From contig JAFCMP010000185.1 of assembly GCA_017506865.1 (NCBI GenBank), forward strand, positions 35,866 to 99,865: 64,000 bases of DNA, read 5' to 3'. The DNA is from Tribonema minus (lineage: Eukaryota; Sar; Xanthophyceae; Tribonematales; Tribonemataceae). The notes beneath the pieces are model-generated. The model made no database searches, had not been told where the DNA came from, and was given only the letters and a program-made list of their open reading frames with translations. Shown here piece after piece: positions 1 through 39,791 of the stretch. Each line of letters begins with the position of its first letter. The first letter of the stretch is position 1. A program made the translations under genes and the position numbers.

Positions 1-3000
1 GCAACACCCCCCCATACCCGTTGCTGTGGTGCAGCATACATCCTGCAAGCACCAGACCTTGTACCCACACCTTTGTGCATCAATGCAGCATAACACGTAC
101 CACAAGCGCAGAAAGACAGGCCCACACCGACAGTCACACATTACTATTTCGAAGTACATCACATGCACCCCAAGCACAAACCATATACATGCACCCATAC
201 ATACATACCTTGGTCGCGTCCAGCACGTTGTTGGAGAACTTTGTGCTCAGCTCCGCCAGCTCCAGCTGGATAGCATTGAACTTCTCCTTTGCCTCGCCCT
301 GAAGCCCCACGCCGCTCAGCTCCATCTAGGGTTAGGGTCAGGGTAAGGGTGAGAGTTAGGGTTAGGATTGCGGCTATGGGGCGGCCGTCAGCATCAATCG
401 CATCATCTAGGCTAAAGGTTCATTTTAGGATAATGACATCTGTCAGCATATAGAGCTCTGGGGTTGTAGTTGGGGTTAAGGCTTGGCATTGAACTTCTCC
501 TTGGCCTCGCCCTGCAGTCCCACGCCACTCAGCTCCATCTGGGGCAGAGTTAGGGTTGCATAGGGGGTTAGAGATAGGGTTCGGTTGGTTAGGGTGCAAG
601 TGGGGGCAGCCGTCAGCATCGAATGCATCATCTAGGCTTGCGGCTTACTTTGGGATGATAAATTCTGACAGCATGCAGCTTTAGGGTCAGGCTAAGGGCA
701 GCTATCAGCCTGGAGCGCAGCTGACCTGCATCTAGGGTTGAGATCAGGGTTGAAGCATCCTGTACGAATAGGTTTAGGGTTGAAGCATCTGTCACTGGTG
801 TCCATCATCATCAAAGTAGACTTTCACGTCACGGAAACATTCAGCCTTGCACATGGGGTGAGCCCTAGCCGTAACCCTCACCCTTACGCAATGTGCTACC
901 ATCTGCATCTGTTCAACAGTTCATGAATATGTACCCTCCAAACCTGACCCGACCTCAACTTGAGTTTCCAAAGCGCCCCAACCTGCCCCCCCCCCCCCCC
1001 CCCCCCCAGCTGCGCACCTGCTTGACGGCGCCGTCGATGATGCGCCACTGCGCACGCTCCACTGGTCTCATCTTGTCGAGTCCCCCTAACACTGGTCTCA
1101 TCTTGTTGAGGCCCCCTAACAATACATCCATCTCCAACTTCAACAGAACAGTACAGCCCCTCCCCCCCCCCCCCCCCCCTTATACCAACACTGCCTACCT
1201 GCTTGACGGTGCCATCGATGATGCGGCACTGCGCCTCCGTGAGGTCCTTGCGGCCGACAGGCTTCTGCCATGTACTCTGCGGCACTGTGCATGTGTTGAA
1301 GTTGACTCTTGAAGTTGACTCTTGAGAGCAACACACGGACAACCCCTCCCCCCCCCCCCCCCTCCTGCGGCAAAACTGCTTACCTGCTTGACGGCGCCGT
1401 CGATGATGCGGCACTGCGCCTCCGTCAGGTCCTTGCGGCCGACAGGCTTCTGCAGGAACTTGAGCGCCGCGTACACGGCCGCGCTCTGCCCCACCGCCTG
1501 GAACGCCTGCACGACCGCCGGCTGCATCGCTTGGTACGCCTCGCGCAGCGCGTCGCTGTTCTTCACACTGCGGAATGACCGCACGAGTGGAGCGGCATGT
1601 GTGGCACGTAAGCGGTGCGAAACGGTGAAGACTGTGTGTGCAGCATTGCTCAACACCTGCACGACCGCCAGCTGCATCGCTTGGTACGCCTCGCGCAGCG
1701 CGTCGCTGTTCTTGACACTGCGGCGCATGCGCGCGCGCGGGAGTGGGGCGGCGTGCGTGGTGCGTAAGCCGTGCGTAAAGTGAGGAAGGGCACCAGTGTG
1801 CAGCATTGCTCAACGCCTGCACATGACTGTGAGCTGCACTGCTTGCTGTGGCGTGCGCGCGCGGTGCGCAGTAAGCGTGGCAGTTTGAACAGCGGTGCGG
1901 AAAGTGAAGGGGGGCAGCGCTGTGCAGCACTGTGCTGCGTATTGCTCAACGCCTGCGCAGCACGTCGCCGTGCTCTGCGCTGCGGCGGGGGCGCGGCACG
2001 CGCGTTGCATTGCACATGTGGCATATCAGCAGTGCAGACGATGATGACATGCAGCAGATTGTGCTGTTGCACTCGATGCTTGCGTCAAGCAAGCAGTTGA
2101 AGAGATGAACTTCCCATTGCTGTGCTCTATGTGGATGAGACACGAAGCGCGGTGCTCTCCCCTCCAGGCATGTTTGCAAGTGCACAAGACACGACGTACA
2201 GCGGTGCTGATGTGTTGAGGTGCATGGCAGCGCTCATATTTGAGGTGCGCCCCATCACCCCCTTGCAAATGCATACCTTGAGAAATGAGCGATTTCTAAA
2301 GTATTCACATATACTTGCATACTGTGCGCGAGCGCCAACCCATTGTGGTGCCCCACCGCCCCAAGCGTACGTATATCATGCTTATTTCAAATGCTGAACA
2401 CATGAATATACAGATGTACTGCGCGCAGCAGCGCTCACCCATTGACGTGCTGCAACACCCCCCATGCGCATGTATATTATGCTTCGATATAGAAGTATAC
2501 TACTGCAATATATATATACATGCATGCAGCGTGCGGCAGCGCTCACCCGTTGAGGTGCACCACCACCCACCACAGCCATGTATATCCTGATCCTCTGAAC
2601 TCCTACCTATACACAATACATGCGTACTGCGTGCGGCAGCACTCACCCCCACACGCACGTATACCATGCTTTCCTGCAGCACTACATATACACATATACA
2701 TCATACTGTTTACAGCAGCGCTCACCCGTTGAGGTGCCCCACGACCCCCACACGCAGTTACATCATGAGTCTCTGAAGTAGTTCACGCAATACATACATA
2801 CTGTGCGCTGAAATATCATGTACACAGACATACTGTACAGAGCTGCGCTCACCCGTTGAGGTCCCCACATGTACATACATCAAGATGCTTACATATGCTA
2901 CTTCCTACATACAAACTGTACGTTGCAGCGCTCACCCGTTGAGTTCTTGTGTATACTACGATCATACATATACATACATACTGTGCTCACCGATTGAGGT

Positions 3001-4872
3001 GCTCCACCACCCCCCACGCGCATGTATATCATGCTTCTTATATTGCTAGTTTGTATACATGTGTAAATGCACACTGTTCGCAGCAGCGCTCACCGTTGAA
3101 GTGCCCCACCACCCCCCACGTGTACGTAAATCATCCTTCTTTGAAGAATACTTCTGTACACATATGTACTTCTACATACATGCTGTTCGCAGCAGTGCTC
3201 ACCCGTTAAGGTGCCCCACCACCCCCCACGCGTACTCCAGCGGCGCCCTGATCTGCTCCATCCTGTCAATCACCATGCTGTAGTCGTACTTCATGCGCTT
3301 CTTGCCCCACGCCTCGCCCGCCTCGGGGTTCTCCAGCGTCGCCTGCCAACACCAAAGTGTAGCCGGCAGTGTTTAGACACAAGGTGAGGGCGTGCATACA
3401 TTCAGACATGCAGAGATGAAGGATAACAGTACCATGATGTATGTGTATGTATGCGTGTATGCGCATTGTGCGCTTCTTCCCCCGCGCCTCGCCGGCATTG
3501 GGCTTCTCCAGCGTTGCCTGCCGACAGCCAACATGACATGTGGCAGGCAGTGTATATGCAGACACAAGGTGAGGGCGCGCATGCACTAAAAAATGCATAC
3601 TTCTGAATAACATTAACATGTGATAGGTATGTACTTCATGCGCTTCTTCCCCCACGCCTCGCCCGTCTCAGGGTTCTCCAGCGTCGCCTACCGATCGCCA
3701 ACATGCAGGCATTGATTGTAGAGACGTATGACAACGTGAGGGCGTGCATACATTGAAAAATGCAGAGGTAACATTGACAATAGGCTATAACCAGAACGTT
3801 CCACACACATGATAACCATATGAGAGAGGTAAGGGGTTGATGGCGCGCATGCATTGGGGTTGGTGTTTGGGTTAGGATGCAGATACTCCGCCCCCCTCGC
3901 CGCAGCCCCATTCTCCCCTTTACGCTGGCGCTCTGCTGAGTTACAGACGCCACCGTGTTGAGACGTGCCACACAACAGGCGTCTGGTCCCCGTGCCACCC
4001 CACAAGCGAAGTGCGAACGTACGATGCCAGAACACAATCGGCGACGTCTTAGCTTTCTCGGCTGCACCGACCCCTTTCCCACCAAACAGGTGCAGCGGCC
4101 ATAATAATCAACAGCTGAAGACACAGTTGAAGACCGTCCTCAAAGATGCATCATGTTAGCTGCCTGGTAGTAACAAAATCGTGTTGGAGGTAGCTGCTGC
4201 CAACATGGCGTGCCCGCAGCAAACGCACACAGGGTGATCTCTCCGCCAAATACACGTGTCCTCAAAAGCGACTGTACAGCGACAACTTGCTGCAGGAAAG
4301 ACTAACAATGCGATCGCAGTAGAAGTCTGGACATGCACGTGCTGCGATGTTGATTTCAACTGCTTCTGCAGACCTCAAGGGCATCCTGTGCGGTGAAAGA
4401 AGAATAAAGGACACTTCATCACGCGCACCTCTAGCTCCTCAAACTCCTTCCGCATGCGGGCCACCAGATGTTCGATGGCGGGCACCACGCTCTCGGGGCC
4501 GATGCTCTCAAACTTTGGCAGGCCGCTCTGCTGCAGCAGGGGATTGTTGCTCACGACGGCGGGGTCCGACGCATCGCCTGACGCGGCAGCCGGAGCGGCA
4601 GCAGGTGCCTCTGCACTAGCAGCGGACACGCCAGCTGCTGCGCTCATGCACATCCCCCCCGCGACGGCATGCTTAGTGGAGAGAGGGCGGTTCGTCCATC
4701 CGAAGGCCAAGCTACGAGTCGTCGCAGCGCAGCGAGGCAAATGCTGCGCTGGCTGACGACGCAGCAGTGCCTGCACAAAGGCGGGGCGGGCTCTGGAGCC
4801 AGCGGAACGAAGAGCGACGCCCTGTCTTGCAGCCAGCAGGGCGATCATGAGAAGCAGGGATCGGGACGTCAT
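1..4872 (-). CDS. M3-family oligopeptidase (oligopeptidase A / thimet oligopeptidase-like), N-terminal part
   Basis: Zinc metallopeptidase of the M3 family, which cleaves short peptides such as leftover targeting peptides in organelles. Four minus-strand exons fit in phase: 4429-4872, 3203-3342, 1384-1567 and 209-325, about 295 codons in all. The first exon has a hydrophobic signal-like start (LLLMIALLA), then an Arg/Ala-rich stretch and the family start [18 protein letters not shown]. Later exons give [20 protein letters not shown], then [19 protein letters not shown], then [17 protein letters not shown] and [14 protein letters not shown], all strongly typical of oligopeptidase A. The HEXXH zinc site lies off the left edge, so the gene is cut by the window and not shown to be broken. 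The leader suggests plastid or other organelle import (inference). Donors and acceptors are all GT-AG. Confidence 0.9.
483..545 (-). repeat. Echo of the acceptor edge of peptidase exon 4
   Basis: A decayed copy of the first ~60 bases of exon 209-325, with its acceptor-like end, lies upstream of that exon on the coding strand. It still reads [17 protein letters not shown]. It is surrounded by degenerate TTAGGG-like sequence. Confidence 0.8.
1016..1290 (-). repeat. Echoes of the donor edge of peptidase exon 3
   Basis: Two copies of the 3-prime edge of exon 1384-1567 with its donor lie downstream in the coding sense, at about 1196-1275 and 1016-1055. Both still read close to RIIDGAVKQ followed by a GT donor. 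Each is followed by a run of G on the coding strand (C on the plus strand). Confidence 0.85.
1645..1990 (-). repeat. Echoes of the acceptor edge of peptidase exon 3
   Basis: Copies of the 5-prime edge of exon 1384-1567 with its acceptor lie upstream in the coding sense. The copy at about 1645-1722 is very close to the exon ([13 protein letters not shown]). Those at about 1810-1850 and 1950-1990 are much more decayed. Confidence 0.8.
2327..3124 (-). repeat. Array of about nine donor-edge echoes of peptidase exon 2
   Basis: The 3-prime edge of exon 3203-3342 (coding GVVGHLNG plus its gtgagc donor) recurs at about 3086-3124, 2985-3022, 2928-2945, 2843-2866, 2712-2757, 2636-2662, 2532-2572, 2432-2466 and 2327-2370. 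Copies are spaced roughly 60-110 bp apart and separated by AT-rich intron sequence with ATACATAC runs. This is the longest echo array in the window. Confidence 0.85.
3466..3695 (-). repeat. Two acceptor-edge echoes of peptidase exon 2
   Basis: The 5-prime edge of exon 3203-3342 recurs upstream in the coding sense at about 3466-3522 and 3640-3695. The first still reads [16 protein letters not shown] against the exon's [16 protein letters not shown]. Confidence 0.85.
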
Positions 4873-5069
4873 GTGGCGCTCCCAAACAGATGTGTGTCGG
4901 TCAGAGAACTTCAGTCAGGACTTCAAGTTCACGTTGAAGATCGTGAAGATCTGATCTGAGAGTGAGCACCTGGTCTGCTCGCGGCAGCTGCTTCTGCAAC
5001 CCGGTGCAAGCACCTGCTCCTGCACACAGCGCAGCTCTGTGAGGAAGGCGATCTGCTACAGCAGCAGCA
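4873..5069. promoter_or_regulatory. Short divergent intergenic region, probable shared promoter
   Basis: Only 197 bp separate the start codons of the minus-strand peptidase and the plus-strand isomerase. Both proteins have organelle-type leaders, so co-regulation from a bidirectional promoter is plausible. No TATA box or other named motif is clear. The segment contains two copies of the CTTCAA / TTGAAG motif that is common in introns here. Confidence 0.4.
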
Positions 5070-6533
5070 ATGCGGTTGCTGTGGACATTCGTGCTGTGGT
5101 CCCAGTCCTGCTGTTGCTGTGCTGCCTTGAAACATGCCAGCAGCATACCTGCGGCTACAGCTGCGGCAGCAAGGTCCCAACAATCCTCGCAGCCAGCGGG
5201 CGTGCCGATATCAAGGCAGACGCTCGTGAGCGCTGCTGTGCAGGCAGCAGCAGCGGGAACCGCGATGGTGGCGTGCCTCTCCAAGGCAGCCCCTGCTGCC
5301 GCTGCTGTCACGGCTGCTGGAAAAGCGCCAACGGCCACAGCTGCAGCATACATGGACGTGCGGATGATGGAGCCGCTGACGGAAGCAAATGGGTACAGCA
5401 GCGCGTCCGCTCCGACAGGAAAACTGGTGTTGGAGTTGTTCGGAACGGAGGCGCCTAAGACCGTGGAGGCCTTTCTGTCTTACATTACGCCAGAGCCCGT
5501 CAAGCTGCAGCAGGACGGCGATGAGGTACGCGTGCCGCTGCGGGATGTAGTCAGCGTTGTATGCAATCAGCAGTCAGATTTGCTGGGTTCAAAGTATCGC
5601 TTAGGCTGCGGCAACATGCTCTGACGTTGTTGATCTGGCCCAGTATGCATGGCCGGCATCCTTTGAGCATAGTTTTGAATCAAAAGACGCTACGCGCGCA
5701 CCAGTCAAGTCAGCCTCTGTCATGCTATGTTCTCAATCAGCAAATTCCATCTACAACACCAAGGCAGCAACACCAAGCTCCTTCGATTCAATTGGCATCA
5801 TGATGTGATGCACAGTGCCATGCATTCTTTCTCTGATGTGGTGCGCCGACGCTGCTGCTGTTGTAGCTGCCACTGCAAACCACATTGCATTGACTCTGTG
5901 TGCACTGCTGGGTATTGCCAAATTTCTTCTCGCGATCACTCAGTGTGGCACAAGCGCGCGTCGACCAGCGACTGCGGCAGCCGCAGCCGGCATACACGGC
6001 CATTACATGTAACTTCCGTTGAAGTTGCTGGCAGGCACGCCCGTTCCACGACATGAAACTGTCGCTTCACTCCTTCAACTGCAGCCATATCAGAATTGCG
6101 CCGCGTCATCTTGCAATCTCTCGCAATCTTCAACACTGTATCGTTCGGCCCTGCCTATTGCAGGCCGGTGAGGCAGAGTCGGGCCCGTCGTACGCCAGCT
6201 CCCTCTTCAAGCGGCACGACCAACTCTCACAAACTTCAACATTGCATCATTTTCGCCCCGCTCACATTGCAGACGGGTGAGGCGGAGTCGGGCCCGTTGT
6301 ATGCAAGCTCTCTCTTCACGCATCTCTCACAAACTTCAACACTATACTGTTCGGCTCTGCCCGTTGCAGGTGGGTGAGGCGGAGTCGGCCCAATCGTACG
6401 TGAGCTCCCTCTTCACGCGGCGCGACCAACACTCCACAACTTCAACATTGTATCATTTTGCCCCGCTTTGCAGGCCGGTGAGGCGGAGTCGGGCCCATCG
6501 CATGCAAGCGCCCTCTTCACGCGGCACGACCAC

Positions 6534-6570
<37 letters not shown>

Positions 6571-12330: not shown

Positions 12331-12364
<34 letters not shown>

Positions 12365-15500: not shown

Positions 15501-17777
15501 CCTCGACTTCAATGTATGTTTTGCTGGAAGCGCACGAAATGACGTGGACCTGTCGAGAACGGCGCTGGAGCAATTCTCTCTGGTGGTGACTCACCTACTT
15601 CAACTTGTGCATATCTGAAAAATGTAACAAGCAACGCGAGCACGGCGCTGGAGGTTCTCTCTGGTGGCGAGTCACCTACTTCAACTTGTACACATTTGAA
15701 GAATGTCACAAGCAATATTCCTGTCGAGCACGGCGCTGGAGCTCGTCCTGGTGGTGAGTCACCTACTTGAAATGTTGAGTCACCCATTCCAAATGTATGA
15801 AAAACGAATTAAAAAGATTGTTGAGCTCTAGGTGACAAGGGATGGTTAGCCGCAAGTGCCTTCCACCAATAATAGTATGTATGTTTCCCTGGAAGCGCAA
15901 CTAGCGACGTGCCTGTCTAGCACGGCACAGAATAGCTCTTCGTGGTGGTGAGTCGACTCTTTTGTTTACACATATCGGGAACTGTAACCAGCGACATGCC
16001 TATCGAGCACTGCTGGAGCAGTTCTCCCTGATGGTGAGTCACCTGCTTTGAGTTTCCCTGTAAGCACAACAAGCGACGTGCCTGTGTAGCGCGGCCGCGG
16101 ACAGCTCTCCGTGGTGGTGAGTCAACTACAGCGACTTATTTTCCCATCAAAGTACAACAAGTGACGTACGTACCCAGCCGTGACTTGGCGGCGCAACCTA
16201 CTGCAGCTTGATCTCAAGTATCAACTGCCTGACAGGACACAGGGACTGTGTACCCCCTGAACCCCCTGTTTGAACCCCCTGTCAACACCGTTGCGGCGGA
16301 GCGCATTCGCTATATTGCAGGCGATGCCTCAGGGCGTTGTAAACAGAGCTGGGGGAGGGGGTGGGGCTGCGCCAGCCAGAACGGGGAGCTGTTTCGAACA
16401 CTTCAACTTGAAGTTTTCTTGTGCCGGCATTCCCAGGCAGCGCCGCAGGCGTCCGCGACATTGTGCTGAGCGCTGCAGCACTGGCTGAGCGATGAAAGCT
16501 GAGCGCTGACGTGACACATCAGCGTTGCTGAGCGCTGCAGCAGTGGCTGAGCGCTGATGTGACACACCGTTGCTGAGCGCTGCAGCAGTGGCTGAGCGAT
16601 GACAGCGCGTTGCTGAGCGATGACGTGACAGCGTTGCTGAGTGATGCCAGCGTGTCCGCAGCGAGCCATGCAGTCCCCTCGTGTCCGTCCCCCCTCATGT
16701 CCGTTCCCCCTCGTGTCCGTTCCAAGGTCTGAAGTTGAAGAAAGGGTCTGAATGGCCACCTCTGATACTCACCGACTCTGCCTCACTCGTGTCGCCTCAT
16801 GCGCCCCCCCCCCCACAAAATGCAGGTGTGCCAGCAGAGCCTGCACGTTGCGCTGCAGCTGAACTGGATACTCGTGGCGGCGCTGGAGGACTATCAGCCG
16901 GAGTCCCCTGACGGCGGCCTGAACCCCAAGTCCAACCCCACCTACTTCAGCCGCTGCATCAAGCTGCTGCAGAATGTGGAGCGCATTGTCGCGCTGGGCA
17001 GCCCAGGGTGAGATTGATGTAATGATACATACCTTACATGTAGTTGTCATTGCACCCCTAAAATGCTGGGTTTCAACTTCAACCCGGGTGCTACTTCAGC
17101 CGCTGCATCAAGCTGCTGCAGAACGTGGAGCGCATTGTCGCGCTGGGCTGCCCGGGGTGAGGTTCATTAACTTCAATAGTAGACCTCACTAGTATTCCAG
17201 ATCCGAACCCTAGATGCTGGCACGGATACTAACTCTAATGCAAGTTTAGCCGCTATCGTTGTGCAAGTTTAGCCGCTATCGTTATGCAAGTGTAGCCGCT
17301 ACGTTGAGCCGCTGCAGAACGTTGAGCGCATTGTCGCGCTGGGCAGCCCAGGGTGAGATCGATATCACCAGTAATGAACCGTTAATGCTTCGAGGTGCAT
17401 GAAGTCTGCGTGCAGGCTGCGTGGCGTGAAGCCATAACCCTGACCGCAACTTTTGTTTTGATTTCAACCCCTGTGTATTGCACACGCGCCCACGCTCGTG
17501 CGTAGCATCAAGCCACCTAGGGTCAGGGTTAGGGTTAGGGTTGGGCGGCCACACAGGCGCACCGTGGCATCCGCTCGTTTAAAATCTTGTCTGCAGAAAG
17601 AGCTTCTGGTCGTGTGCAAGCGGTTGAAACACGACTGCATGCGTGACAACGGCCACCAGCGATCGTATTGCCGATGCTGCTCTGGTGACACAACATCGTC
17701 GCATGTTTCTTCAGACCCATGATTTGAAACTCGCAACTCGTCACTCATGTGCGGCCCGCTCCTCACCCTCATGCCGC

Positions 17778-17818
<41 letters not shown>

Positions 17819-32800: not shown

Positions 32801-35800
32801 GGGCTAGGATTAGGATTACGCTACAGACTAGGGTCGGCGCATGCCGCCGCTGAGCGCTGCTGATCCTACCGCCACACGATGTACATAGCGGTGTGATGCG
32901 AAGACTTCAAGCGCGCATCAGGAAGAAAATGCGTGCAGCGCGGCTCACGACGGTCGCCCGCAGCAGCTGCAGCACCGCATGGCCAGCGGCCAACAATCAG
33001 TCGCCCGCCTTTAGGGTTAGGGTTAGGGTTGGGGTTAGCCACTGGCGCGCCACGCCATCCACTATCGTCACGAGCCCCGACATTCTGTAGCTGCGCATGT
33101 GTAGTGATGAGATGAGCACGTAATTAGGGTTAGGGTTTGACCCACCGCCCCAAACCCCCCACCACCACCTCAACAATCATGCACCGCTACGCACGCGACG
33201 CAGGGCACCGGCGACAGCAAAGCCGCGGCGGCAGCAGCTGCGCAGCCAGCCGAAGGCGGCGCTCAACAAACAACAGACGGCGCTGCAGCAGCGGCAGCGG
33301 CGGCGGCGGCAGCTGATGACTGCGTCGCGGTGGCGGTGGCGGATCCGCCGACCAAGGCGACGGCGGCGGCGGCAGTGCGGCCGGAGTCGCCCATTGCCGC
33401 CGATGCCTATGTGCAGGTGCGTAGGGCAAACTGAATGCATGCATGCCGTCGTGGTAGCGGTGGTTGCCGCAGGGGGGGCGAAGCGGCAGCGCGCTCGGCT
33501 GGGCATGCCAGTGACTCTCCTCGTGTACTCAGTTTCAAGATGCTGCACGGTGTATCGCACCGGGGATTTTTGCCCCCGCATGCGCAAATAAAACAGGATA
33601 CATATACATAGCTGTGAGCCCTGACCGTGCGCACGCTGGCGCGGTGACAAAAAGCAATGCTGTTCCAGACAGCAAGCGGGTCATTTGTGCACTTGTGGCG
33701 ATGTGCAGGGCCCATCCTTGTGTATACCGCCCAACGCCAGAGCAGGCATGCCTTACATCGTCCGCTGCCTCAGATGATCGCGTGGAGGTGGGCTGAGGTG
33801 GCTGAAGTGTTCTGCAGTGCATGCTGTGTCGCAAGCCAGCTGACCTGCTGTGCCTGCGTCCCAAGATCTCACTTGCCATTGCGCCGCCGCTGCTGCTGCT
33901 GCTGCTGCCACCGCTGCTGCTGCTGCTGCTGCTGCAGGGCGGGTCCCAGAGCGACGACGACGACGCACCGGAGCTCGCAGAGGACAACGCCCTTCCGGAC
34001 TTCACCCCCGCATCCTCCAGCCTGCAGGCATCTTCCCATGCCGTCAGCGGCACCCGCAGTGGCGACGGCGGTAGCGGCGAAGGGGAAGGGGGGGGGGCGA
34101 GGGGGAGGGGGGGGCGCAGGAGAGGGTGTCGGGCGCGGTGCGCGCGGTGGGGGCGGTGGAGGGGGACGCGGACGTGCTCGCGCGCGCGAATAAGTTCTTC
34201 TGCCACGGGGAGAGCCTGCAGGACACGGTGGCGCGGCTCAAGCAGGTGCGTGCGCACGCGGGGGGGGAGGGGGGGTTCACGCCTCAGCGCTCGTCAAGTA
34301 CAGTGTACTCTTTGTGAACTACAGTTGCATGTGAGTGGTGGAGGGAGATGCGGACGTGCTCGCGCGCGCGCATAAGTTCTTCTGCCACGGCGAGAGCCTG
34401 CAGGACGCGGTGGCGCGGCTCAAGCAGGTGGCTGTGCGGGACGGTGCACGCGGCAGCGCTCATGGAGTGCAGTGTACTCTTTGTGAACTATAGTTTGTCA
34501 CCATGCGGAGTCGCGACGGGGTGCAGGTGACCAGGGGCATGCAATCGTGCAGCTCTGGGTGAAGCGCGACATCTGCGCTACCATGTGCATGAAATACTTG
34601 TACTTTTCATGTTTTCATTCATCTTGCTGGCTGGATTCATCGTATTCATGGCGCTGCAGATGGTCCTTTTGCCTATGCTGCTCTGCGCAGCAGAGTGCGA
34701 TGGCCGGGGCACACGCAAGTGGGGGGTGGAGCGCATCAGCTGCACAGTGTGTCATGTTAATGTCTGGCGGGCAGGGGGCGGAGCGCATAATTTGCGCCTT
34801 TATTTTTTGTATTGATTGAATGTTTGCTGGAGTCGGTGTATCCATGGTCATTTGCAACCCTACCCCTAACCCCAAGCATTTTCTGTCGCTGGCTTGATAA
34901 CTCCTGCTTCAAAGTTGATCAAAGATCGCCATGGCACTGATGATGGTCCGCGCTTGCCACTGCTGCTAATGCTCCGCGTGCGCCTTTCTGCGCAGCAGAG
35001 CTCAGCGGCCGCCGGCACGCGCGGGTGGGGGAGCGCATAATATCTGCACATTTTTTTAAATTGCATTTTCTGTTGCTTGCTAATAACATGCTTTTGCTTC
35101 GAAGTTTCTAGCCATGGCACTGAGAATGGTTACCGCTGCTGCTGACGTCGTGTACGCCTTTCCGCGCAGCAGAGCTCAGCGGCTGCCGGCACGCGAGGGT
35201 GGGGGGTGAAACGCATAATCTGCACCATACGCTGCGTTCTGGTTTGCGCGACTCGCTGTATCATGGTGCTGACACGTGCCCACTTGCCGCTGCTGCTGAC
35301 CTCGTGCGCGCCTTTCCCTGCAGCAGAGCTCGGCAGCTGCGGGGACGCGCGGGTGGGGCGTGGAGCGCATAATCTGCAAGAGCAACGACGACCTGCGGCA
35401 GGAGGTGTTCATCATGCAGCTCATCTACTTCTACCTGGAGGTGTTCCAGAAGGAGACGCTGGATCTGTGGCTGCAGCCGTACCGCATACTGTCCACCAGC
35501 AAGTCCACGGGCTTGATACAGGTGCGTACGCGTGCATCTGCTGTAGTCATATTAAGACTGTACTGTGGGGTTATCGTAATACAAAGCTTGTGCTGTAGAA
35601 GAAGTTGTGTGATCTGCTGTGTCAGAGGTCATGTGCTTGGGACCGGCCGCTCTTTACCAGCTAGTACACGGGCTCGACACAAGTGCGCACATGTATTCGT
35701 ATACTTGAAGTTTGCACGTATATAGAAGTACTTGAAAAAGTTTTTATGCGCATCCGCCGCACTCGCGTATACACACATACTGGAGGGTCTTTGTCGCAGA

Positions 35801-38800
35801 AGAAAACGTGTGACACGCTGTGTCAGAACACATGCACTCGGGCTAGAGGTAGGCTTATGTAGGGTACACAGGGGGGTTGAGGGGGGGACTCTGACCCTCA
35901 GACCTGTGGCTGCCTTCTTCATGTTCACTACGCGATGATCGCATTCAGCTGGTCCACTAACCCTAACCTTAACCCTAACCCTATGTGGGTCAGCGGGCCC
36001 GTCAAGAGCATACACACCCCCATGTATGCTCGTGCATACATACACGTACCCCATTGGCGCGGCAGGGCTAGGGTTAGGAGCCCCACGGGTGTATGCCCTT
36101 GCACACATATGTGCCCTGTTGACGCGACAGATCAGGGTTAGGTTAGGGTTACGGCGCACGCCTCAGGGAAGGGGCGTGTTCAGAGCGTAGGTATGTATGC
36201 CTCACGCATGTATGCTCATGCACATACACGACAGGGCTAGGGTCAGGATTAGGGTTACGGTCAGGGCTCACATTTGCCGTGCATTCGCCACGCTGTGCGC
36301 CGCAAACTGCATCTGCGTGAGCTCATGCGGAATCAGCTGGCGCCGCTGCCACTGCGGTGCGGATGCAACTTTAACTTCAACTCCCCGGCTGCCGCTTCCG
36401 AGCGGGCGTCGCCAGACAATGCTAGAAGTGAGGTACTTAGGGTTAGGGTTAGGGTTAGGGTTATCGTCGATGCGTATTGAGACACTGGAATGCTTTCACA
36501 CAAGACGCCCGTAGATGATGGTAGCAGTCTAGACATCTACCATCTGGGCTTTTCCGCGCCCTAGGCAAGAATGAATGAAAAATATATAGCAAGTATGACA
36601 AACCTGTTGACATACATTGGTGTGACTCACTCACTCACTCATTCAATCACTCACTCGCCATCAGGTGCTAGACAACAGCATATCCCTGCACGGGCTCAAG
36701 AAGAACCCCGACTACCCGGGGAGCCTGGGGGGCGTGTTTGAGCAGGTCTGGGGGGCGGCTGGCTCAGAAGCGCTCAATGAGGTACGCATGTATGCATGCT
36801 AATTTCCCCATGGGTACGTATAGGTATAGTTTGAGCAGGTCTGGGGCGCGGCTGGCCCAGAACATCTAGGTACGTGCACATGCCAATTCACCGAGCATAG
36901 TGTGGGTTTATAGTTGGGCAGGTCTGGGGGTCGGCTGGCCCAGAAGCTATGCTGTATGCCATTTCACCCAGGGTAGGTATAGGTATAGTTTGAGCAGGTC
37001 TGAGGCGCGGCTGGCCCAGAACACCTAGGCACGTGCGCATGGCAATTCACCGAGCGTAGTGCGATTTATAGTTGGGCAGGTCTGGGGGGCGGCTGGCCCA
37101 GAAGCGCTCAACGAGGTACGTATGTATGCTGATTCACCCAGGGTAGGTATACGTATAGGTGGGGGTATGTACATATGCCAACTCAATGAGATAATCTGCA
37201 TGTTAACTCGCCCAGGGTAGGTATTGGTATAGTGTCAGCAGGTCTGGGGGGCGGCGGGCCTAGAAGCGCTCAGCGAGGTACATGTGTACTTCTATGCTAA
37301 TTCACCCAGGGCAGTCATAGGTATAGTTTGAGCAGGTGTGGAGGCGGCTGGCCCAGAAGCGCGCAATGAGGTGACATAAGATATTCACACAGCAGCACAG
37401 GTATAGGTGTGCCACCTTGGGGGTATGTGCGTATCGCCTATTTAAACAATGTATGTACTTCTTCTTCTTTGAAGTATGCATGCAATTTCACCAAGCGTAG
37501 TATCTTATGGTGCGGGGCGGCTACTTGTTGTGAATGCTTGCTCCAGCATGTACTTCCACGAAGATCGTGATGCATGGCATATTGCATATCGCAATGCCAT
37601 GGTGCATATGAGAAAGTCAGTCACCAATATATATACATACCTACATGCACCTCAGGCGCGGCGGCGGTTCGCGCAGAGCCTCGCGGGCTATAGCGTGGTG
37701 TCGTACCTGCTGGCCTTCAAGGACAGGCACAACGGCAACATCATGATCACCAACGAGGGGCGCCTGATCCACATTGACTTTGGGTTCGTCTTCGGGCAGG
37801 CGCCCGGCAACCAGGTACGTGTGTTCGCTGCATGACAAGATCATTGCTTACATGCATGTAGGAGGCGCCTGCATGCGTACACGCAGCAGCGCTCAGCAAG
37901 TGCTGTCAATACTCGAGCATGCGCACACGAGGACGCACCGAGCACGTGACCATTGCTGACATGCATGTAGGAGGCGCCTGCATGCGTACACGCAGCAGCG
38001 CTCAGCAAGTGCTGTCGATACTCGAGCATGCGCACACGAGGACGCACTGAGCACGTGACCACATGTTTATGCGTGCCCGTCTTTGGGCAGGCGCCGGGCA
38101 ACCAGGTACTTGTGTATACTTGCGTGCGCTGCGCGACGACACTGTGAATCTGCACGGCGCCAACAATTTCTCGAGATGCGCGCACTGAAGGATGCACGAT
38201 ACACGCAGCAGTGCTCGGCAAATGCGGACGTCAGTTGCTGACCTTGCGACGGCGCTTCACACACAGGCGAGCACGCACGGAGCACACGACTCAATGTTGA
38301 TGCATGCACGCGCAGGTAACACATTGCAGTGGCGCGCGCAGCGCCGCATCCAGCCTTACCCTTACCCTAACCCTATCCTAGCCCTAACCCTAGGTGGCGC
38401 TCACGCCGCCGCATCCAGCGACCGGAATGCAGCGCGCACTGCGCACAGGGAGCGAGCAGAGCTTTGAGGCGACGTTTCGCACCTGGGTGGTTGTTGCGTG
38501 CCTCAACACCGCTTCAGCTGCACTGGAAGCCCTTGAGCTCAGCACCGCAGTGCTCACATTATCACGACTGCCGCTTGCCTGCCCCCCCCCCCCCCCCCCC
38601 CCCCCCTCTCCCCCCCCCCTGGCTACCACAGTTCTCCATGGAAAGAGCGCACTTCAAGTTGACGCAGGAGTACGTTGACGTCCTCGGCGGCCGCGACTCC
38701 GAGATGTTCAAATACTATGTTGAGATGGTCGGCCAGGGACTTGTGGCGGTAAGTCCAAGTCAGAGTCACTTTGCCATCATGTTGTTTATTGGAGTGGCGT

Positions 38801-39791
38801 TGCTGGTGATGTTCAAACACTACATGGAGATGGTTAGCCAGGGACTTGTGGCGGTGGATACAAGTCAGACTCAATTTGCCATCAGTCGTTGTTTGGAGTG
38901 ATATTGCTGGTAATGTTTAAGCACTACATGGAGATGGTCGGCCAGGGACTTGTGGCGGTGAGTACAAGTCAGAGTCATCTTGCCAGCACGTAAGTTTTGT
39001 TTGACTCGTGGCCAATCGCCGCAATATCGGCGACCTTGGTTATTAAGGCATTCAATTTGATGGGTCGTATTGCTGGTTGTTGCTGACGACGGGGTTGCTG
39101 TTTTTCCTGGGGTGCTTTTGCGCGGCACCTGCAATCCACTTGTTTGTTGAGCCGTGAGCACCGTCACGTGGTCCTTGAAGCTGCAGCATTTGGCAAAGGG
39201 CGCCCCTCCCGACACGACATTCCAGCAACTTGCCGCACTCTGTTGCCATGTTATCGTAGCGATTGTGTGGTGACCACATGAAACCTCTGCGCACCGGCAA
39301 CTTCAAGCACATGAAGAACGTACTTTGCCCTTGCTTCGTCCCCCAGGTACGCACAGCAACCACGCGCCGGTCAAGCGTTTGCGCAAAGATCGCTTGTGAA
39401 TTGAACTGCAAGTACATGGAAGGAGATGTCGAAAACTGCCCCCGCCCCGTCCCCCCAGCCGCGCAAGTACCAATGGTCGCCTCACTTAGAACTTCAAGTA
39501 CATGAAGTATATACTAACCGCCCTCCCCCCCCCCCTCTCCACCAGGCGCGCAAGTACGCGACGGTCGCCATCACGCTCCTGGAGATCATGATGTTCCAGA
39601 GCGAGTTCCCTTGCTTTGCGGGGGGCGCCGCGCCGCGCGCGCTGCGCGCCTTCCAGCGCCGCCTCATGCGCAACCTCACGGACGACGACATCCGGCGCAA
39701 GGCGCGACAGATGGTCGACCAGTCGCTGGACCACAAGGGCACGCGCCTCTACGACCGCTTCCAGCTCTTCTCCAACGGCATACTGCCGTGA
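12535..39791 (+). CDS. Phosphatidylinositol 4-kinase, type III beta / Pik1-like, with a PH domain
   Basis: Phosphorylates phosphatidylinositol at the 4 position, typically at Golgi membranes. I model 23 exons whose phases all agree except within exon 18: 12535-12746, 12992-13082, 15243-15392, 16826-17007, 17896-17929, 18731-18852, 19688-19880, 20425-20562, 21564-21683, 22582-22670, 23319-23436, 26345-26494, 27350-27476, 28599-29172, 31200-31263, 31653-31892, 33204-33416, 33938-34245, 35327-35521, 36665-36781, 37656-37814, 38632-38748 and 39546-39791 (stop TGA). Product about 1,320 residues, longer than human PI4K beta. Order: helical region (~70-225), PH domain (~250-374), conserved linker, long low-complexity insert (~576-1040), kinase domain (~1045-1318). 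The kinase part is clearly beta type (DDLRQE, DRHNGN, HIDFGF, TKLYD-like ending). The start codon choice and small exon 5 are the least certain. Confidence 0.9.
13770..14310 (+). repeat. Tandem repeat of about four ~150 bp units in kinase intron 2
   Basis: Units share GCATGCAGGCGGCGGCAGGC, then a CATCAACTTGAAG stretch and a GCGCTCACATCTTGTGCGTG-like stretch. They decay to the right. No exon of the model matches them, so they may echo a lost exon or be ordinary minisatellite. Confidence 0.7.
13880..13904. repeat. 25 bp near-perfect palindrome
   Basis: Arms CCCTATGCGGAG and CTCCGCATAGGG flank a single central G, inside one unit of the ~150 bp tandem repeat. Confidence 0.9.
14560..15010 (+). 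repeat. Tandem repeat of about three ~120-150 bp units
   Basis: Repeated blocks carry a CGCATRCCTA start, a TGGGCCTGG or TTGGGGCTTG stretch, a GGGGCGCCATA block and a GGTGTGGGG block followed by GAGCGGAG. The third unit contains the long hairpin at 14890-14955. Confidence 0.65.
14890..14955. repeat. Long hairpin: 25 bp stem with one mismatch, 16 nt loop
   Basis: The left arm begins GCTTGGGGCTTGCGG and ends ATGCCCC at 14914. The right arm runs from 14931 (GGGGCATACG) to 14955. It lies in a kinase intron. Confidence 0.9.
15460..16130 (+). repeat. About seven donor-edge echoes of kinase exon 3
   Basis: The edge AGCACGGCGCTGGAGCAG, a TTCTCTCTGGTG block and the GTGAGTCACC donor recur near 15460, 15542, 15640, 15722, 15905, 15995 and 16075. 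The following intron words CCTACTTCAACTT and ATGTATG are shared, so the unit spans the splice site. Decay increases irregularly to the right. Confidence 0.88.
15805..15873 (-). repeat. Short dispersed repeat, copy 1 (tRNA-like)
   Basis: About 69 bp, roughly 80 percent identical to 26695-26763. The shared core is GAGCTCTAGGTGACAAGG followed by GGTTAGCCGCAAGTGC. On the minus strand the better copy has a B-box-like GATTCGATTCC, so a tRNA-derived SINE head is possible. Confidence 0.6.
17092..17350 (+). repeat. Two donor-edge echoes of kinase exon 4
   Basis: The copy at 17092-17160 repeats SRCIKLLQNVERIVALG almost exactly with its GGGTGAG donor. A shorter copy lies at about 17296-17356. Between them is a short direct repeat of GCAAGTTTAGCCGCTATCGT (about 17241 and 17264). 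Confidence 0.9.
17518..17544 (+). repeat. Interstitial telomere-like array (TTAGGG)n
   Basis: About four TTAGGG-like units in kinase intron 4. Confidence 0.85.
17779..17895 (+). repeat. (CTG)n / (CCG)n triplet tract ending at an acceptor
   Basis: Some 30 CTG-type triplets run to the CTGCTGCAG acceptor of small exon 5. The triplet tract seems to stand in for a normal pyrimidine tract. It generates long false poly-Leu, poly-Ala and poly-Gln frames. Confidence 0.85.
18731..20562 (+). other. PI4-kinase exons 6-8: PH domain
   Basis: Exon 6 ends in GYLWHKRWTHR and continues in exon 7 with KGVHRHRWIRRWFSLVDR, the classic first strands of a PH domain. Exon 8 has YAYYFTVESPMGRWRLRADT and the C-terminal helix with ADMWVQALQAA, whose Trp is the invariant PH tryptophan. 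PH domains bind phosphoinositides. PI4K beta of animals and Pik1 of yeast lack one, while the alpha type has a PH-like region, so this placement is unusual. Confidence 0.85.
18926..19560 (+). repeat. Echoes of kinase exon 6 donor edge and exon 7 acceptor edge
   Basis: Donor-edge copies of exon 6 (CCCCCGGAGGGGTACCTGTG, then the GGACACACAG-type edge) lie at about 18926-18985 and 19057-19110. Acceptor-edge copies of exon 7 (CAGGAAGGGYGTCCAYCGGC) lie at about 19346-19395 and 19500-19560. The real exon 7 starts at 19688. Upstream, 18461-18500 is an acceptor-edge echo of exon 6. Confidence 0.87.
20100..20735 (+). repeat. Echoes around kinase exon 8
   Basis: Acceptor-edge copies (TACGCGTACTACTTCACGGT, then GAGAGCCCGATGGG) lie at about 20100-20140, 20208-20250 and 20310-20360. 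One donor-edge copy (GACATGTGGGTGCAGGCGTT, then AGCATCAAACAGGTGA) lies at about 20666-20735. The real exon is 20425-20562. Confidence 0.88.
20836..21430 (+). repeat. Four acceptor-edge echoes of kinase exon 9
   Basis: Copies of GAGGAGCTGGAGGCCAACGT, then GCTCAAGACC, lie near 20836, 21016, 21177 and 21382, spaced about 160-200 bp apart. Each is preceded by GCTCCTCGCGCCAGGC-like intron sequence and followed by GCATGGCATGCACTTGAT. Confidence 0.87.
21768..21920 (+). repeat. Two donor-edge echoes of kinase exon 9
   Basis: Copies of the GCGAGCATCGCCTCGGA edge through the CCGCAGGTATG donor lie at about 21768-21814 and 21860-21920. Confidence 0.85.
22306..22775 (+). repeat. Echoes around kinase exon 10
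   Basis: Acceptor-edge copies (GCAGCGCTCGGAGGACGCGT) lie at about 22306-22340 (weak) and 22445-22480. A donor-edge copy (CTCGACGGAGGTCAGGCCAA, then GAGGTATGTATG) lies at 22738-22775. The real exon is 22582-22670. Confidence 0.8.
23526..23680 (+). repeat. Two donor-edge echoes of kinase exon 11
   Basis: GGAGCGCCGCCTGCAGGTGC-type copies with donor lie at about 23526-23560 and 23640-23680. Confidence 0.8.
24520..24542 (+). repeat. Interstitial telomere-like array (TTAGGG)n inside the fold-back
   Basis: Nearly four perfect TTAGGG units form the left part of the spacer between the inverted arms. Confidence 0.9.
24598..24687. repeat. Two successive hairpins with related sequence
   Basis: 24598-24631 has a perfect 15 bp stem (GTGAAGACAGCAATG) with a TCTC loop. 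24654-24687 is a close relative (GTGAAGACGGCAAT) whose stem needs two G-U type pairs. A half unit precedes them at about 24545-24598. Confidence 0.9.
25001..25043 (+). repeat. Interstitial telomere-like array (TTAGGG)n
   Basis: About seven TTAGGG-like units with a few changes, in kinase intron 11. Confidence 0.88.
25930..26255 (+). repeat. Three acceptor-edge echoes of kinase exon 12
   Basis: CAGAGCGTGCGCATCCCGGA-type copies lie at about 25930-25970, 26050-26090 and 26184-26255. The last still codes SIPEVPYLPLVESTDLFRRV. They are separated by CCCTAA-like words. Confidence 0.88.
26562..27150 (+). repeat. Five to six donor-edge echoes of kinase exon 12
   Basis: Copies of ACCTTTGAGACYGCGGCGCA with a GGTA or GGCATG donor-like end lie near 26562, 26627, 26788, 26910, 27006 and 27115. 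They are separated by ATACATACATGCCTAGAGG-type intron sequence that repeats with them. Confidence 0.87.
26695..26763 (-). repeat. Short dispersed repeat, copy 2 (tRNA-like)
   Basis: Second copy of the repeat at 15805-15873. Read on the minus strand it has CTGGTAGAAAGCACTTG (A-box-like) and about 40 bases later GATTCGATTCCC (B-box-like). The stems of a full tRNA are not convincing, so it is at best a tRNA-derived remnant. Confidence 0.5.
27205..27262 (+). repeat. Acceptor-edge echo of kinase exon 13
   Basis: A copy of CAGTGGCTGGAGGAG, then CCCCTTGGACGACAAGGACA, with its CAG acceptor, lies about 145 bp before the real exon at 27350. Donor-edge copies (CTGCACGACATGAACACCTC) lie at about 27695-27750 and 27900-27945. 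Confidence 0.87.
28371..28440 (+). repeat. Acceptor-edge echo of kinase exon 14
   Basis: CAGGCTTCCGCAACATGGAC then GAGCTGCTGGTGCAGGAAGG copies the start of exon 28599-29172, and is preceded by a 21-base C run. It could be read as an alternative exon. Confidence 0.87.
29906..30749. mobile_element. Non-autonomous hAT-type DNA transposon, 844 bp, with 8 bp target site duplication
   Basis: The ends are TAGGGTTG and CAACCCTA, short inverted repeats of the hAT kind, flanked by an exact 8 bp duplication CTCATGTC at 29898-29905 and 30750-30757. Subterminal CGTATTT words are numerous at both ends in both orientations (about 29925-30005 and 30655-30720), as expected of transposase binding sites. No transposase is recognised inside, so it depends on a full element elsewhere. 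It sits in kinase intron 14 and contains a TTAGGG-like patch at about 30139-30178. The intact duplication suggests a fairly recent insertion. Confidence 0.88.
30897..30926. repeat. Head-to-head telomere-like repeats
   Basis: TTAGGG units run into CCCTAA units with a shared GGTTAACC centre, a short palindromic telomere-like junction. Confidence 0.85.
31363..31405 (+). repeat. Donor-edge echo of kinase exon 15
   Basis: A decayed copy of the exon 31200-31263 edge ends GGAGAGCCCAAATGTGA, like the real GGGAGCCCAAATGTGAGT. Confidence 0.75.
31529..31560 (+). repeat. Interstitial telomere-like array
   Basis: About five TTAGGG-like units in kinase intron 15. Confidence 0.85.
32021..32320 (+). repeat. 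Donor-edge echoes of kinase exon 16
   Basis: Copies of AACACGGCGGAGCAGATG then GGCGGCGGCGCCAATGTGAG lie at about 32021-32075 and 32265-32325, with a fragment at about 32180-32200. A GTTCGCAGCAGCTCT word after each donor is also repeated. Confidence 0.82.
33011..33038 (+). repeat. Interstitial telomere-like array
   Basis: About four TTAGGG-like units in kinase intron 16. Confidence 0.85.
33888..33937 (+). repeat. (CTG)n tract ending at the exon 18 acceptor
   Basis: CTG triplets lead directly into the CTGCAG acceptor, as at 17779-17895. Confidence 0.85.
34330..34435 (+). repeat. Donor-edge echo of kinase exon 18
   Basis: A ~100 bp copy of the exon end still codes GDADVLARAHKFFCHGESLQ and ends at a CAG-GTGG donor-like site. 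It is so well preserved that use as an alternative exon cannot be excluded. Confidence 0.87.
34690..35225 (+). repeat. Three acceptor-edge echoes of kinase exon 19
   Basis: Copies of CAGCAGAGYKCRGYGGCYG, then GCACGCGGGTGGGG and GAGCGCATAATCTGCA, lie at about 34685-34780, 34990-35050 and 35165-35228. The real exon starts at 35327. Confidence 0.88.
35957..35983 (-). repeat. Interstitial telomere-like array (CCCTAA)n
   Basis: About four CCCTAA-like units in kinase intron 19. Further single units occur up to about 36262. Confidence 0.85.
36437..36462 (+). repeat. Interstitial telomere-like array (TTAGGG)n
   Basis: About four perfect TTAGGG units in kinase intron 19. Confidence 0.9.
36829..37372 (+). 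repeat. Six donor-edge echoes of kinase exon 20
   Basis: Copies of TTGAGCAGGTCTGGGGGGCG, then GCTGGCCCAGAAGCGCTCAA, with a GAGGTACG donor, lie near 36829, 36913, 36989, 37070, 37231 and 37327. The intron words AATTCACCCAGGGTAGGTAT and ATAGGTATAG repeat with them. Spacing is mostly 75-100 bp. Confidence 0.9.
37842..38059 (+). repeat. Recent 109 bp tandem duplication in kinase intron 21
   Basis: 37842-37950 and 37951-38059 are head-to-tail copies with only a few differences. A donor-edge echo of exon 21 (GGGCAGGCGCCGGGCAACCA, then GGTACTTGTG) follows at 38083-38115, showing the same process at two ages. Confidence 0.92.
38356..38392 (-). repeat. Interstitial telomere-like array (CCCTAA)n
   Basis: About six CCCTAA-like units with changes, in kinase intron 21. 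Confidence 0.85.
38582..38606 (+). repeat. Poly-C tract serving as a pyrimidine tract
   Basis: A 25-base C run followed by CTCT and nine more C leads to the exon 22 acceptor at 38631. Confidence 0.9.
38808..38960 (+). repeat. Two donor-edge echoes of kinase exon 22
   Basis: Copies at about 38805-38862 and 38910-38962, spaced about 105 bp, carry MFKHYMEMVSQGLVAV-like coding and the intron words AAGTCAGAGTCA and TTGCCATCA. Acceptor-edge echoes of exon 23 lie at about 39343-39362 and 39455-39485. Confidence 0.88.

What the first reader, a model, noticed from the sequence alone, without database searches (positions are those of the whole stretch)
209..39791. Exon-edge echoes: nearly every exon is flanked by decayed tandem copies of its own splice edge
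In all three large multi-exon genes (peptidase, isomerase, PI4-kinase) real exons are accompanied by one to nine copies of part of themselves. Copies of the 5-prime edge with its acceptor lie upstream of the exon; copies of the 3-prime edge with its donor lie downstream. Neighbouring intron words are copied too, at spacings mostly of 75-200 bp. The polarity follows directly if introns lengthen by tandem duplication of segments that span splice sites, with the outer copy decaying. I know of no standard name for this pattern at such density. It would also supply cryptic splice sites and alternative exons.
Basis: partly seen in the sequence, partly recalled or inferred. Interest (0 to 1): 0.9.

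Follow-up and report, generated by a model that had tools for sequence, protein, structure and literature searches.

The report
Splice-edge copies scattered through alga introns
In this alga's genome many introns have grown by repeated short duplications that straddle exon borders, leaving worn-out copies of exon edges with their splice signals inside the introns, which gives an unusually readable record of how introns get longer.

Summary
In the three genes, 25 of 30 modelled exons have at least one copy of part of themselves in a neighbouring intron. Polarity is complete: in the window, kinesin and chaperonin sets, 66 copies of 5' edges lie upstream, 87 copies of 3' edges lie downstream, and none lies on the wrong side. 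The pattern is not universal: 23 of 54 kinesin and 13 of 35 chaperonin exons have a copy, and several genes have none.

The copies decay as neutral DNA. Pooled mismatch is 7.5% at codon positions 1+2 and 15.6% at position 3, ratio 2.07 (1.7-2.5 by gene set), where neutrality predicts 2. GT or AG is intact in 104 of 114 copies, as neutrality predicts.

I add a probable cause, fill-in repair of staggered breaks: a 177-bp duplication (175/177 identical) flanks a 673-bp insert of plastid-like DNA capped by telomere repeats. Duplicated units also carry unexpectedly little exon. Single cases are known (potato RdRp gene). My paper searches listed no report of this density, but they were narrow. No RNA data were available.

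The parts
209..4872 (-). M3-type oligopeptidase gene, N-terminal part: exons 4872-4429, 3342-3203, 1567-1384, 325-209
   Evidence: exon models (e2 shortened to 3342); Pfam TOP_N E 8e-31
3469..3687 (-). two 5'-edge echoes of peptidase e2 (3631-3687, 3469-3517)
2347..3125 (-). five 3'-edge echoes of peptidase e2
   Evidence: TRF array 2985-3235 period 102
1652..1974 (-). two 5'-edge echoes of peptidase e3 (1652-1717, 1949-1974)
1018..1268 (-). two 3'-edge echoes of peptidase e3
486..538 (-). 5'-edge echo of peptidase e4
5070..7586 (+). cyclophilin-type isomerase gene: exons 5070-5525, 6620-6751, 7366-7586 (a later 3' part not modelled)
   Evidence: Pfam Pro_isomerase E 8.7e-22
6164..6525 (+). 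four 5'-edge echoes of isomerase e2
6533..6570 (-). CCCTAA telomere-repeat run between the nearest echo and isomerase e2, abutting a direct duplication on both sides
7043..7262 (+). two 5'-edge echoes of isomerase e3
7686..8228 (+). four 3'-edge echoes of isomerase e3
12547..39791 (+). PI4-kinase gene, 23 modelled exons (phases between e14 and e19 uncertain)
   Evidence: PDB match; e1-e14 and e19-e23 align to protein P0001 without echo-sized insertions
15451..16033 (+). five 3'-edge echoes of PI4K e3 (15243-15392)
   Evidence: DNA 15393-15790 matches only this place in the genome
17091..17352 (+). two 3'-edge echoes of PI4K e4
18461..18488 (+). 5'-edge echo of PI4K e6
18935..19101 (+). two 3'-edge echoes of PI4K e6
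   Evidence: TRF 18810-19129 period 124
19354..19569 (+). two 5'-edge echoes of PI4K e7
19949..19990 (+). 3'-side echo of PI4K e7 (trimmed, classed interior)
20112..20348 (+). three 5'-side echoes of PI4K e8 (one trimmed)
20655..20731 (+). 3'-edge echo of PI4K e8
20848..21425 (+). five 5'-side echoes of PI4K e9
21754..21916 (+). two 3'-edge echoes of PI4K e9
22451..22475 (+). 5'-edge echo of PI4K e10
22730..22766 (+). 3'-edge echo of PI4K e10
23649..23670 (+). 3'-edge echo of PI4K e11
25933..26255 (+). three 5'-side echoes of PI4K e12
26566..27143 (+). six 3'-side echoes of PI4K e12
27209..27258 (+). 5'-edge echo of PI4K e13
27699..27937 (+). two 3'-edge echoes of PI4K e13
28378..28440 (+). 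5'-edge echo of PI4K e14
31357..31403 (+). weak 3'-edge echo of PI4K e15 (75% identity)
32024..32059 (+). 3'-edge echo of PI4K e16 (G-rich)
34337..34427 (+). 3'-edge echo of PI4K e18
34705..35224 (+). four 5'-side echoes of PI4K e19
35656..35681 (+). weak 3'-edge echo of PI4K e19
36829..37370 (+). six 3'-side echoes of PI4K e20
   Evidence: TRF 36802-37105
38078..38105 (+). 3'-edge echo of PI4K e21
38808..38957 (+). two 3'-edge echoes of PI4K e22
   Evidence: TRF 38704-38985 period 104
39460..39485 (+). weak 5'-edge echo of PI4K e23
41366..41705 (.). young tandem duplication outside the modelled genes, 169-bp unit, 98% identical
41678..42704 (.). 177-bp duplication (41678-41854 and 42528-42704, 175 of 177 identical) flanking a 673-bp insert that starts with CCCTAA repeats, carries plastid-like AT-rich DNA and ends with a TTAGGG repeat
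51573..51794 (.). young tandem duplication outside the modelled genes, 109-bp unit, 99% identical

Best explanation
The echoes are the discarded halves of short head-to-tail duplications (mostly about 90-200 bp) whose unit straddled a splice site. After such a duplication there are two identical splice sites about 150 bp apart. The protein survives only if splicing uses the site still joined to the whole exon, so the other copy becomes intron and decays freely. Repeats of this process lengthen the intron and stack copies. Shown here: direct orientation, mostly tandem arrangement, complete polarity, neutral decay of the copies with constraint kept on the exon, single-locus origin for the one array tested, and occurrence in unrelated genes. 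Inferred: each unit arises when a break with long staggered ends is filled in and rejoined, sometimes with foreign DNA (telomere repeats, plastid DNA) caught between the two copies. Also inferred: units carrying much exon are removed by selection, because their copied splice site would compete too well.
For: Direct against inverted pairs 198:4, shuffles 0. Polarity 153 of 153 edge copies over three gene sets; inverted controls 2 of 54 and 1 of 35 exons, cross controls 4 of 54 and 0 of 37. Homology covers at least 90% of the spacing in 48 of 68 successive pairs, though the extension is generous. Pooled codon-position mismatch 441/5869 at positions 1+2 and 453/2910 at position 3, ratio 2.07. GT/AG intact in 104 of 114, neutral expectation 97.5, P 0.11. 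In the window, direct-repeat coverage is 37.7% of intron bases, 4.4-12.8% in three stretches outside the modelled exon-intron spans and 0.0% in a shuffle. DNA 15393-15790 matches only its own locus. Break-repair signs: the 177-bp duplication around a telomere-capped plastid-like insert, and young filler-free duplications of similar size (169, 109, 101 bp) with 0-4 bp excess. Telomere-repeat runs abut a duplication on both sides in 8 of 98 cases against 3% of 1500 random points. The model protein aligns to a relative's protein without echo-sized insertions.
Against: The repair step rests on one clear insert case and a modest enrichment. In one search seven loci had been fetched because they hold telomere repeats, four runs are counted twice from overlapping loci, and three of the eight positives lie in one locus (L005). 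The two other plastid-like inserts that I read (L043, L044) show no telomere caps by eye. The telomere repeats at the insert point the wrong way for simple telomere addition to the chromosome ends. The codon ratio varies between sets: window 2.5, kinesin 1.7, chaperonin 2.0. Identity does not fall with distance from the exon (Spearman 0.08, P 0.52). Some genes have no echoes and I cannot say why (e.g. 0 of 5 exons at C235:871-877k; 0 of 2 at C268). Window exon models were hand-built, and locus edges were predicted with a splice matrix from the same 30 exons. No RNA evidence.
Confidence: 0.8

Rival explanations
1. Tandem duplications strike introns evenly, and exon edges stand out only because one copy is held constant by selection and is easy to recognise.
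For: Direct repeats cover 37.7% of all intron bases in the window, deep intron included; young duplications occur outside the modelled genes too. At a strict threshold (34/40) edges (14.0%) equal intron points 60-300 bp away (13.7%).
Against: At 29/40, 56% of 50 edges (of 56; 6 dropped as low complexity) are spanned by a repeat, against 28.7% of intron points 60-300 bp from an edge and 15.1% beyond 300 bp; the last two are both intron DNA with the same detectability, although the near points include the echo arrays. Other loci show a weaker form: 17.5% of 120 predicted edges, then 10.3%, 6.6% and 8.6% with distance. Exon share is not uniform: 9 of 76 units are more than half exon, 34 expected, but that can be selection.
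Confidence: 0.4
2. The echoes are kept by selection as decoy or alternative splice sites, or as regulators of splicing.
For: Most copies keep an intact GT or AG (104 of 114); AG is rarely lost (1 of 70 positions in window plus kinesin copies). The window alone has a codon ratio of 2.5.
Against: Retention does not differ from neutral decay (expected 97.5 of 114, P 0.11), and the pooled codon-position ratio 2.07 fits a free-running copy against a constrained exon.
Confidence: 0.07
3. Ordinary minisatellite growth by slippage or unequal exchange, seeded by chance near exons.
For: Some stretches are regular arrays (e.g. TRF period 96, 104, 124); unequal exchange probably adds copies once two exist (inference).
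Against: Spacing varies within one array (81-280 bp in PI4K e3, 77-192 in e12), and many edges have a single extra copy. It also does not explain first duplications of single-copy sequence.
Confidence: 0.15
4. Introner-like or transposable elements that carry splice sites.
For: Introns do hold a dispersed ~72-bp element.
Against: The one array tested, 15393-15790, has no match elsewhere in the genome, and the copies are of the neighbouring exon itself.
Confidence: 0.02
5. Assembly artefact.
For: None found; no independent assembly was available.
Against: Copies differ by 7.5% and 15.6% at codon positions 1+2 and 3 and occur on many contigs. Assembly errors do not know codon positions.
Confidence: 0.01

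Closest known systems
[quoted passage not shown] also PMC2891723, abstract read)
   Same: A tandem duplication leaves duplicated splice signals, and sequence between them ends up removed by splicing
   Different: There an exonic segment (AGGT or proto-splice site) is duplicated and a new intron appears; here an existing splice site is duplicated and the existing intron gets longer, repeatedly and in several gene families
Potato RdRp gene: tandem duplication crossing an intron-exon boundary (PMC4974935, abstract read)
   Same: The unit crosses the boundary, and an exon fragment of the upstream copy becomes intronic
   Different: One event, with a new donor and a new intron; here 153 edge copies over three gene sets and no new intron claimed
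Small tandem duplications from fill-in at staggered breaks: CST/Pol-alpha in mouse and human cells (PMC8355091, abstract and passages); paired nicks in plants (Schiml 2016, seen only as a reference there, not held); rice patch-mediated repair (Vaughn and Bennetzen 2014, recalled)
   Same: Duplication at breaks with long overhangs followed by end joining
   Different: In PMC8355091 small duplications are introduced as under 100 bp; units here are mostly 90-200 bp; the repair genes of this alga were not examined
Interstitial telomeric sequences inserted at double-strand breaks in mammals (PMC2246262, abstract; PMC7215372, search listing)
   Same: Short telomere-repeat runs inside chromosomes as signs of break repair
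   Different: 31 runs of at least 14 bp in this 64-kb window, some between duplication copies, one pair capping plastid-like DNA
Direct repeats near intron borders (Rogers and Bendich 2025, PMC11782384, abstract read)
   Same: Direct repeats associated with intron borders and break repair
   Different: Those are 4-30 bp repeats around the two borders of an intron; these are tens of bp to about 100 bp of exon edge plus intron, copied inside the intron

Membership tests
[quoted passage not shown]
[quoted passage not shown]
   intron positions were not compared with relatives; nothing in the models requires a new intron
Tandem exon duplication / mutually exclusive exons | a whole exon with both splice sites is copied | tested here: not met
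   0 whole-exon copies among the hits
Introner elements | near-identical copies at many unrelated loci (feature recalled) | tested here: not met
   one array tested, no match outside its own locus
Minisatellite arrays | constant repeat unit length (feature recalled) | tested here: not met
   spacing within arrays varies, e.g. 77-192 bp; a few sub-arrays are regular
Break fill-in duplications (patch-mediated / paired-nick repair) | the duplicated target flanks captured filler DNA in some products (feature recalled) | tested here: met
   one clear case, 177 bp around 673 bp of filler; 8 of 98 telomere runs abut a duplication on both sides against 3% of random points
Break fill-in duplications (patch-mediated / paired-nick repair) | end-joining junctions with little microhomology | tested here: inconclusive
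   excess 0-4 bp in three young units, a fourth lies in an array; too few
Break fill-in duplications (patch-mediated / paired-nick repair) | dependence on end-joining and fill-in genes | not testable with these tools
   needs a genetically tractable relative

The most novel reading that the evidence does not exclude
Splice junctions are themselves hot spots of duplication: breaks form preferentially just inside introns at exon borders, perhaps because transcription or splicing exposes single strands there, so that splicing drives the growth of its own introns in a subset of genes. It would fit the edge excess over deep intron (56% against 15%), the small exon share (median 51 bp of a unit of about 155-165 bp), the lack of echoes at all three first exons and the split into echo-rich and echo-free genes. 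Selection and the easier recognition of edges can explain much of this, so it is not shown.
Probability: 0.2. Interest if true: 0.85.

Novelty: new variant of a known kind. Interest (0 to 1): 0.62.

Why it matters
How introns get long without transposons is hard to document, because the traces usually vanish. Here the exon serves as a fixed yardstick, so each duplication can be seen, oriented and roughly dated. 153 edge copies were found around the 119 exons examined; the genome-wide number was not counted but should be far larger (inference). They are natural duplicates of working splice sites that splicing seems to ignore. That makes two questions testable with RNA: how the right site is chosen, and how often decoys are used. 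It is also a practical hazard: three profile matches turned out to be echoes, not exons (C246:701357, C5:353415, C51:21979).

Tried and rejected
Rejected readings: introner or transposon, assembly artefact, selected decoys, green alga (my first guess; the PI4K and kinesin relatives are ochrophytes).

Led nowhere: a BLAST self-comparison timed out. A first extension analysis aligned overlapping windows to themselves and is void (second part; redone). A per-gene tally was overwritten by the control loop and is not used. Age ranking by distance from the exon showed no trend. Searching rbcL to name the species found two short matches with stops, read as plastid fragments in nuclear contigs. No tRNA and no Rfam match in the window. 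Correlations of repeat coverage with GC (P 0.27) and telomere repeats (P 0.10) were weak; CpG ratio and poly-C runs gave rho 0.32 (P 0.01), uncorrected and with overlapping loci. Seven word searches for the pattern listed no paper that describes it; I saw only the top rows (30 of 165, 30 of 138, 15 of 28) and the library is open-access only.

Dropped rows. A stricter complexity filter gave 16 of 54. Chaperonin: 40 of 49 matches were used, 3 with stops and 2 echoes dropped, leaving 35. With those two echo matches counted as exons the result was 15 of 37 with 2 polarity exceptions. Window codon counts leave out interior hits of e14, e16 and e17. The splice-site count uses 145 of 153 edge copies (predicted edge is AG or GT), of which 114 cross the splice site. 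One search used the 54 kinesin and 27 of the chaperonin exons.
Full report
What was checked. The window lies at G000:C185:35866-99865 of an unnamed 158-Mb genome in 554 contigs. Protein relatives place it among ochrophyte algae, with no close match by name: the PI4K N-terminal part is 56% identical to an MMETSP transcript protein and 54% to Phaeothamnion; a kinesin is 74% identical to Choristocarpus, 73% to Chrysoparadoxa and 68% to Heterosigma. I read bases 1-48000 directly and built exon models by hand for the three genes: PI4-kinase 23 exons, isomerase 3, peptidase 4. PI4K phases between e14 and e19 are uncertain, a low-complexity linker. The PI4K exons e1-e14 give one open frame. Aligned to protein P0001 they show 297 of 504 identical residues, with target-only gaps of at most 5 residues and one query-only gap of 11; e19-e23 show 198 of 277 with a single 1-residue gap. 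Against the Phaeothamnion protein P0002 the largest gaps are 13 target-only and 7 query-only residues. In neither is an echo-sized piece inserted at an exon junction.

Direct repeats at 20-1500 bp outnumber inverted ones 198 to 4, with 0 in each of three shuffles. Searching each exon in its own flanking introns (threshold 31, the 99.5% point of 600 shuffled searches) gave 87 copies; 25 of 30 exons have at least one and PI4K e12 has nine. Of the 69 copies that include an exon edge, 28 are 5' edges upstream, 41 are 3' edges downstream and none is on the wrong side; 18 more are classed interior. Controls gave 10 inverted hits, 7 of them in three low-complexity exons, and 7 cross hits in 60 searches. 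Copies follow each other at a median 158.5 bp, interquartile range 110-186, n=68.

It is genome-wide but uneven. Kinesin exons (PF00225): 23 of 54 have a copy; there are 46 edge copies, all of the expected polarity, and 12 interior ones; inverted control 2 of 54, cross control 4 of 54. Chaperonin exons (PF00118): 13 of 35; there are 38 edge copies, all of the expected polarity, and 4 interior ones; inverted control 1 of 35, cross control 0 of 37. In an earlier pass two chaperonin matches that are themselves echoes produced two apparent exceptions. Short exons are hit most: 16 of 27 kinesin exons under 250 bp, 4 of 16 at 250-500 bp, 3 of 11 at 500 bp or more. Some genes have none, for example 0 of 5 exons at C235:871-877k and 0 of 3 at C511:165-169k. 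Direct-repeat coverage over 64 loci, some overlapping, runs from 0 (18 loci) to 0.71.

Why the polarity is complete. If a unit that spans an acceptor is duplicated head to tail, the left copy of the exon head is necessarily upstream of the exon; the mirror image holds at the donor. Only splicing from the copy still attached to the whole exon keeps the protein. The polarity therefore follows from tandem duplication plus ordinary purifying selection (inference from geometry). Whole-exon copies, which would alter the mRNA, were not found.

The copies are neutral. If the exon is constrained and the copy is free, codon positions 1 and 2 should differ by one branch of neutral change and position 3 by about two. 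Pooled: 441 of 5869 (7.5%) at positions 1+2 and 453 of 2910 (15.6%) at position 3, ratio 2.07 (which adds the window counts). By set the ratio varies: window 153/2317 and 189/1154, 2.5; kinesin 153/1945 and 131/964, 1.7; chaperonin 135/1607 and 133/792, 2.0. Intron columns away from the splice site differ by 20.4%, in copies chosen to be at least 60% alike there. For the 114 of 145 copies in which the duplication crosses the splice site, GT or AG is intact in 104, four more have GC donors, and neutral decay predicts 97.5 (P 0.11). I see neither removal of these cryptic sites nor clear retention of them. Splicing apparently tolerates them, perhaps because the true exon is recognised by its two edges together, whereas a copy has only one (inference).

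Where duplications fall. In the window 37.7% of intron bases are covered by direct repeats, against 12.8%, 4.4% and 10.9% in three stretches outside the modelled exon-intron spans and 0.0% in a shuffle. These stretches are not clean baselines: the first holds the isomerase e3 echoes, the last a retroelement. A repeat spans 56% of 50 exon edges, 28.7% of intron points 60-300 bp from an edge, 15.1% beyond 300 bp and 2.0% of exon interiors at 29/40; at 34/40 edges and near intron are equal (14.0% and 13.7%). In other loci the pattern is weaker: 17.5% of 120 predicted edges, 10.3%, 6.6% and 8.6% with growing distance, and 2.6% of exon interiors. Recognition bias explains part of the edge excess but not the drop from near to deep intron. 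The duplicated unit carries little exon: median 51 bp where uniform placement gives 75, and 9 of 76 units are more than half exon where 34 are expected (lowest of 20,000 simulations 18). Either selection removes units with a large exon share, or breaks form on the intron side; the data do not decide.

How the duplications probably arise. Just outside the echo-rich gene a 177-bp sequence is present twice (41678-41854 and 42528-42704, 175 of 177 identical). Between the copies lies a 673-bp insert that begins exactly at the copy's end with CCCTAA repeats, contains AT-rich sequence that I read as plastid-like (rpl3-like and other fragments; recognised from memory), and ends with a TTAGGG repeat. 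A staggered break of about 177 bp, filled in on both sides and joined through captured DNA, gives just this. Filler-free duplications elsewhere in the window have the same size class (169 and 109 bp). Telomere-repeat runs touch a direct duplication on both sides in 8 of 98 cases against 3% of 1500 random points; seven of the loci were fetched for their telomere repeats, four runs are counted twice, and three of the eight cases share one locus. Duplications from fill-in at staggered breaks are established elsewhere (PMC8355091, abstract and passages), as is insertion of telomere repeats at breaks in mammals (PMC2246262, abstract). The orientation of the telomere repeats at this insert suggests that a fragment already capped at both ends was captured, not that telomerase healed the chromosome ends (inference).

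Known or new. Tandem genomic duplication is one of the recognised routes of intron gain (PMC3443670, passages), and a duplication crossing an intron-exon boundary is described for one potato gene (PMC4974935, abstract). Seven word searches of the open library listed no paper that describes it as a genome-wide habit; I saw only the top rows of the longer lists, so this is weak evidence of absence. I therefore call it a new variant of a known kind: the same elementary event, but repeated until it makes up much of the introns in some genes, acting on length instead of number, and leaving a datable record.

What is missing. RNA, a second strain or close relative, and a full-genome tally. The difference between echo-rich and echo-free genes is unexplained.

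Noticed in passing
window, 31 runs of at least 14 bp (e.g. 6533-6570, 25001-25043, 36437-36463): Interstitial telomere-repeat runs (TTAGGG/CCCTAA) are strikingly frequent: 31 in 64 kb, 98 over the loci held (four counted twice; seven loci were fetched for such repeats). 8 of 98 sit exactly between two copies of a direct duplication.
   Followed up: partly
window 41678-42704: A plastid-like DNA fragment capped by telomere repeats in the orientation of a free linear molecule (CCCTAA...TTAGGG) sits between two 177-bp copies of the target. Two other plastid-like inserts read (L043, L044) showed no such caps by eye.
   Followed up: partly
window 55234-60429, minus strand: One 1732-residue open frame carries a C-5 cytosine DNA methylase domain followed by reverse transcriptase, RNase H and integrase domains: a Ty3-like retroelement with a methyltransferase. 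Methyltransferase-bearing retroelements are recalled from other algae; one paper search listed three papers, none read.
   Followed up: no
window 26690-26763; a related copy near 15795-15880 seen by eye: A dispersed element of about 72 bp, with 40 scored matches among 384 candidates in the genome, inserted into echo-rich PI4K introns.
   Followed up: partly
window 12746, 5525, 4429 (3' edges of first exons): None of the three modelled first exons has an echo; too few to test.
   Followed up: no
L040 (0% repeat coverage over 10 kb) against L064 (71%): Genes fall into echo-rich and echo-free groups without a clear link to GC; CpG ratio and poly-C runs correlate weakly.
   Followed up: partly
G000 C246:701357, C5:353415, C51:21979: Some echoes keep enough open frame to be reported as separate domain matches, so automatic gene models in this genome may include false exons.
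   Followed up: partly
window introns generally: Intron stretches are rich in ACTTCAACTT/AAGTTGAAGT-like words and in long poly-C runs (by eye); meaning unknown.
   Followed up: no
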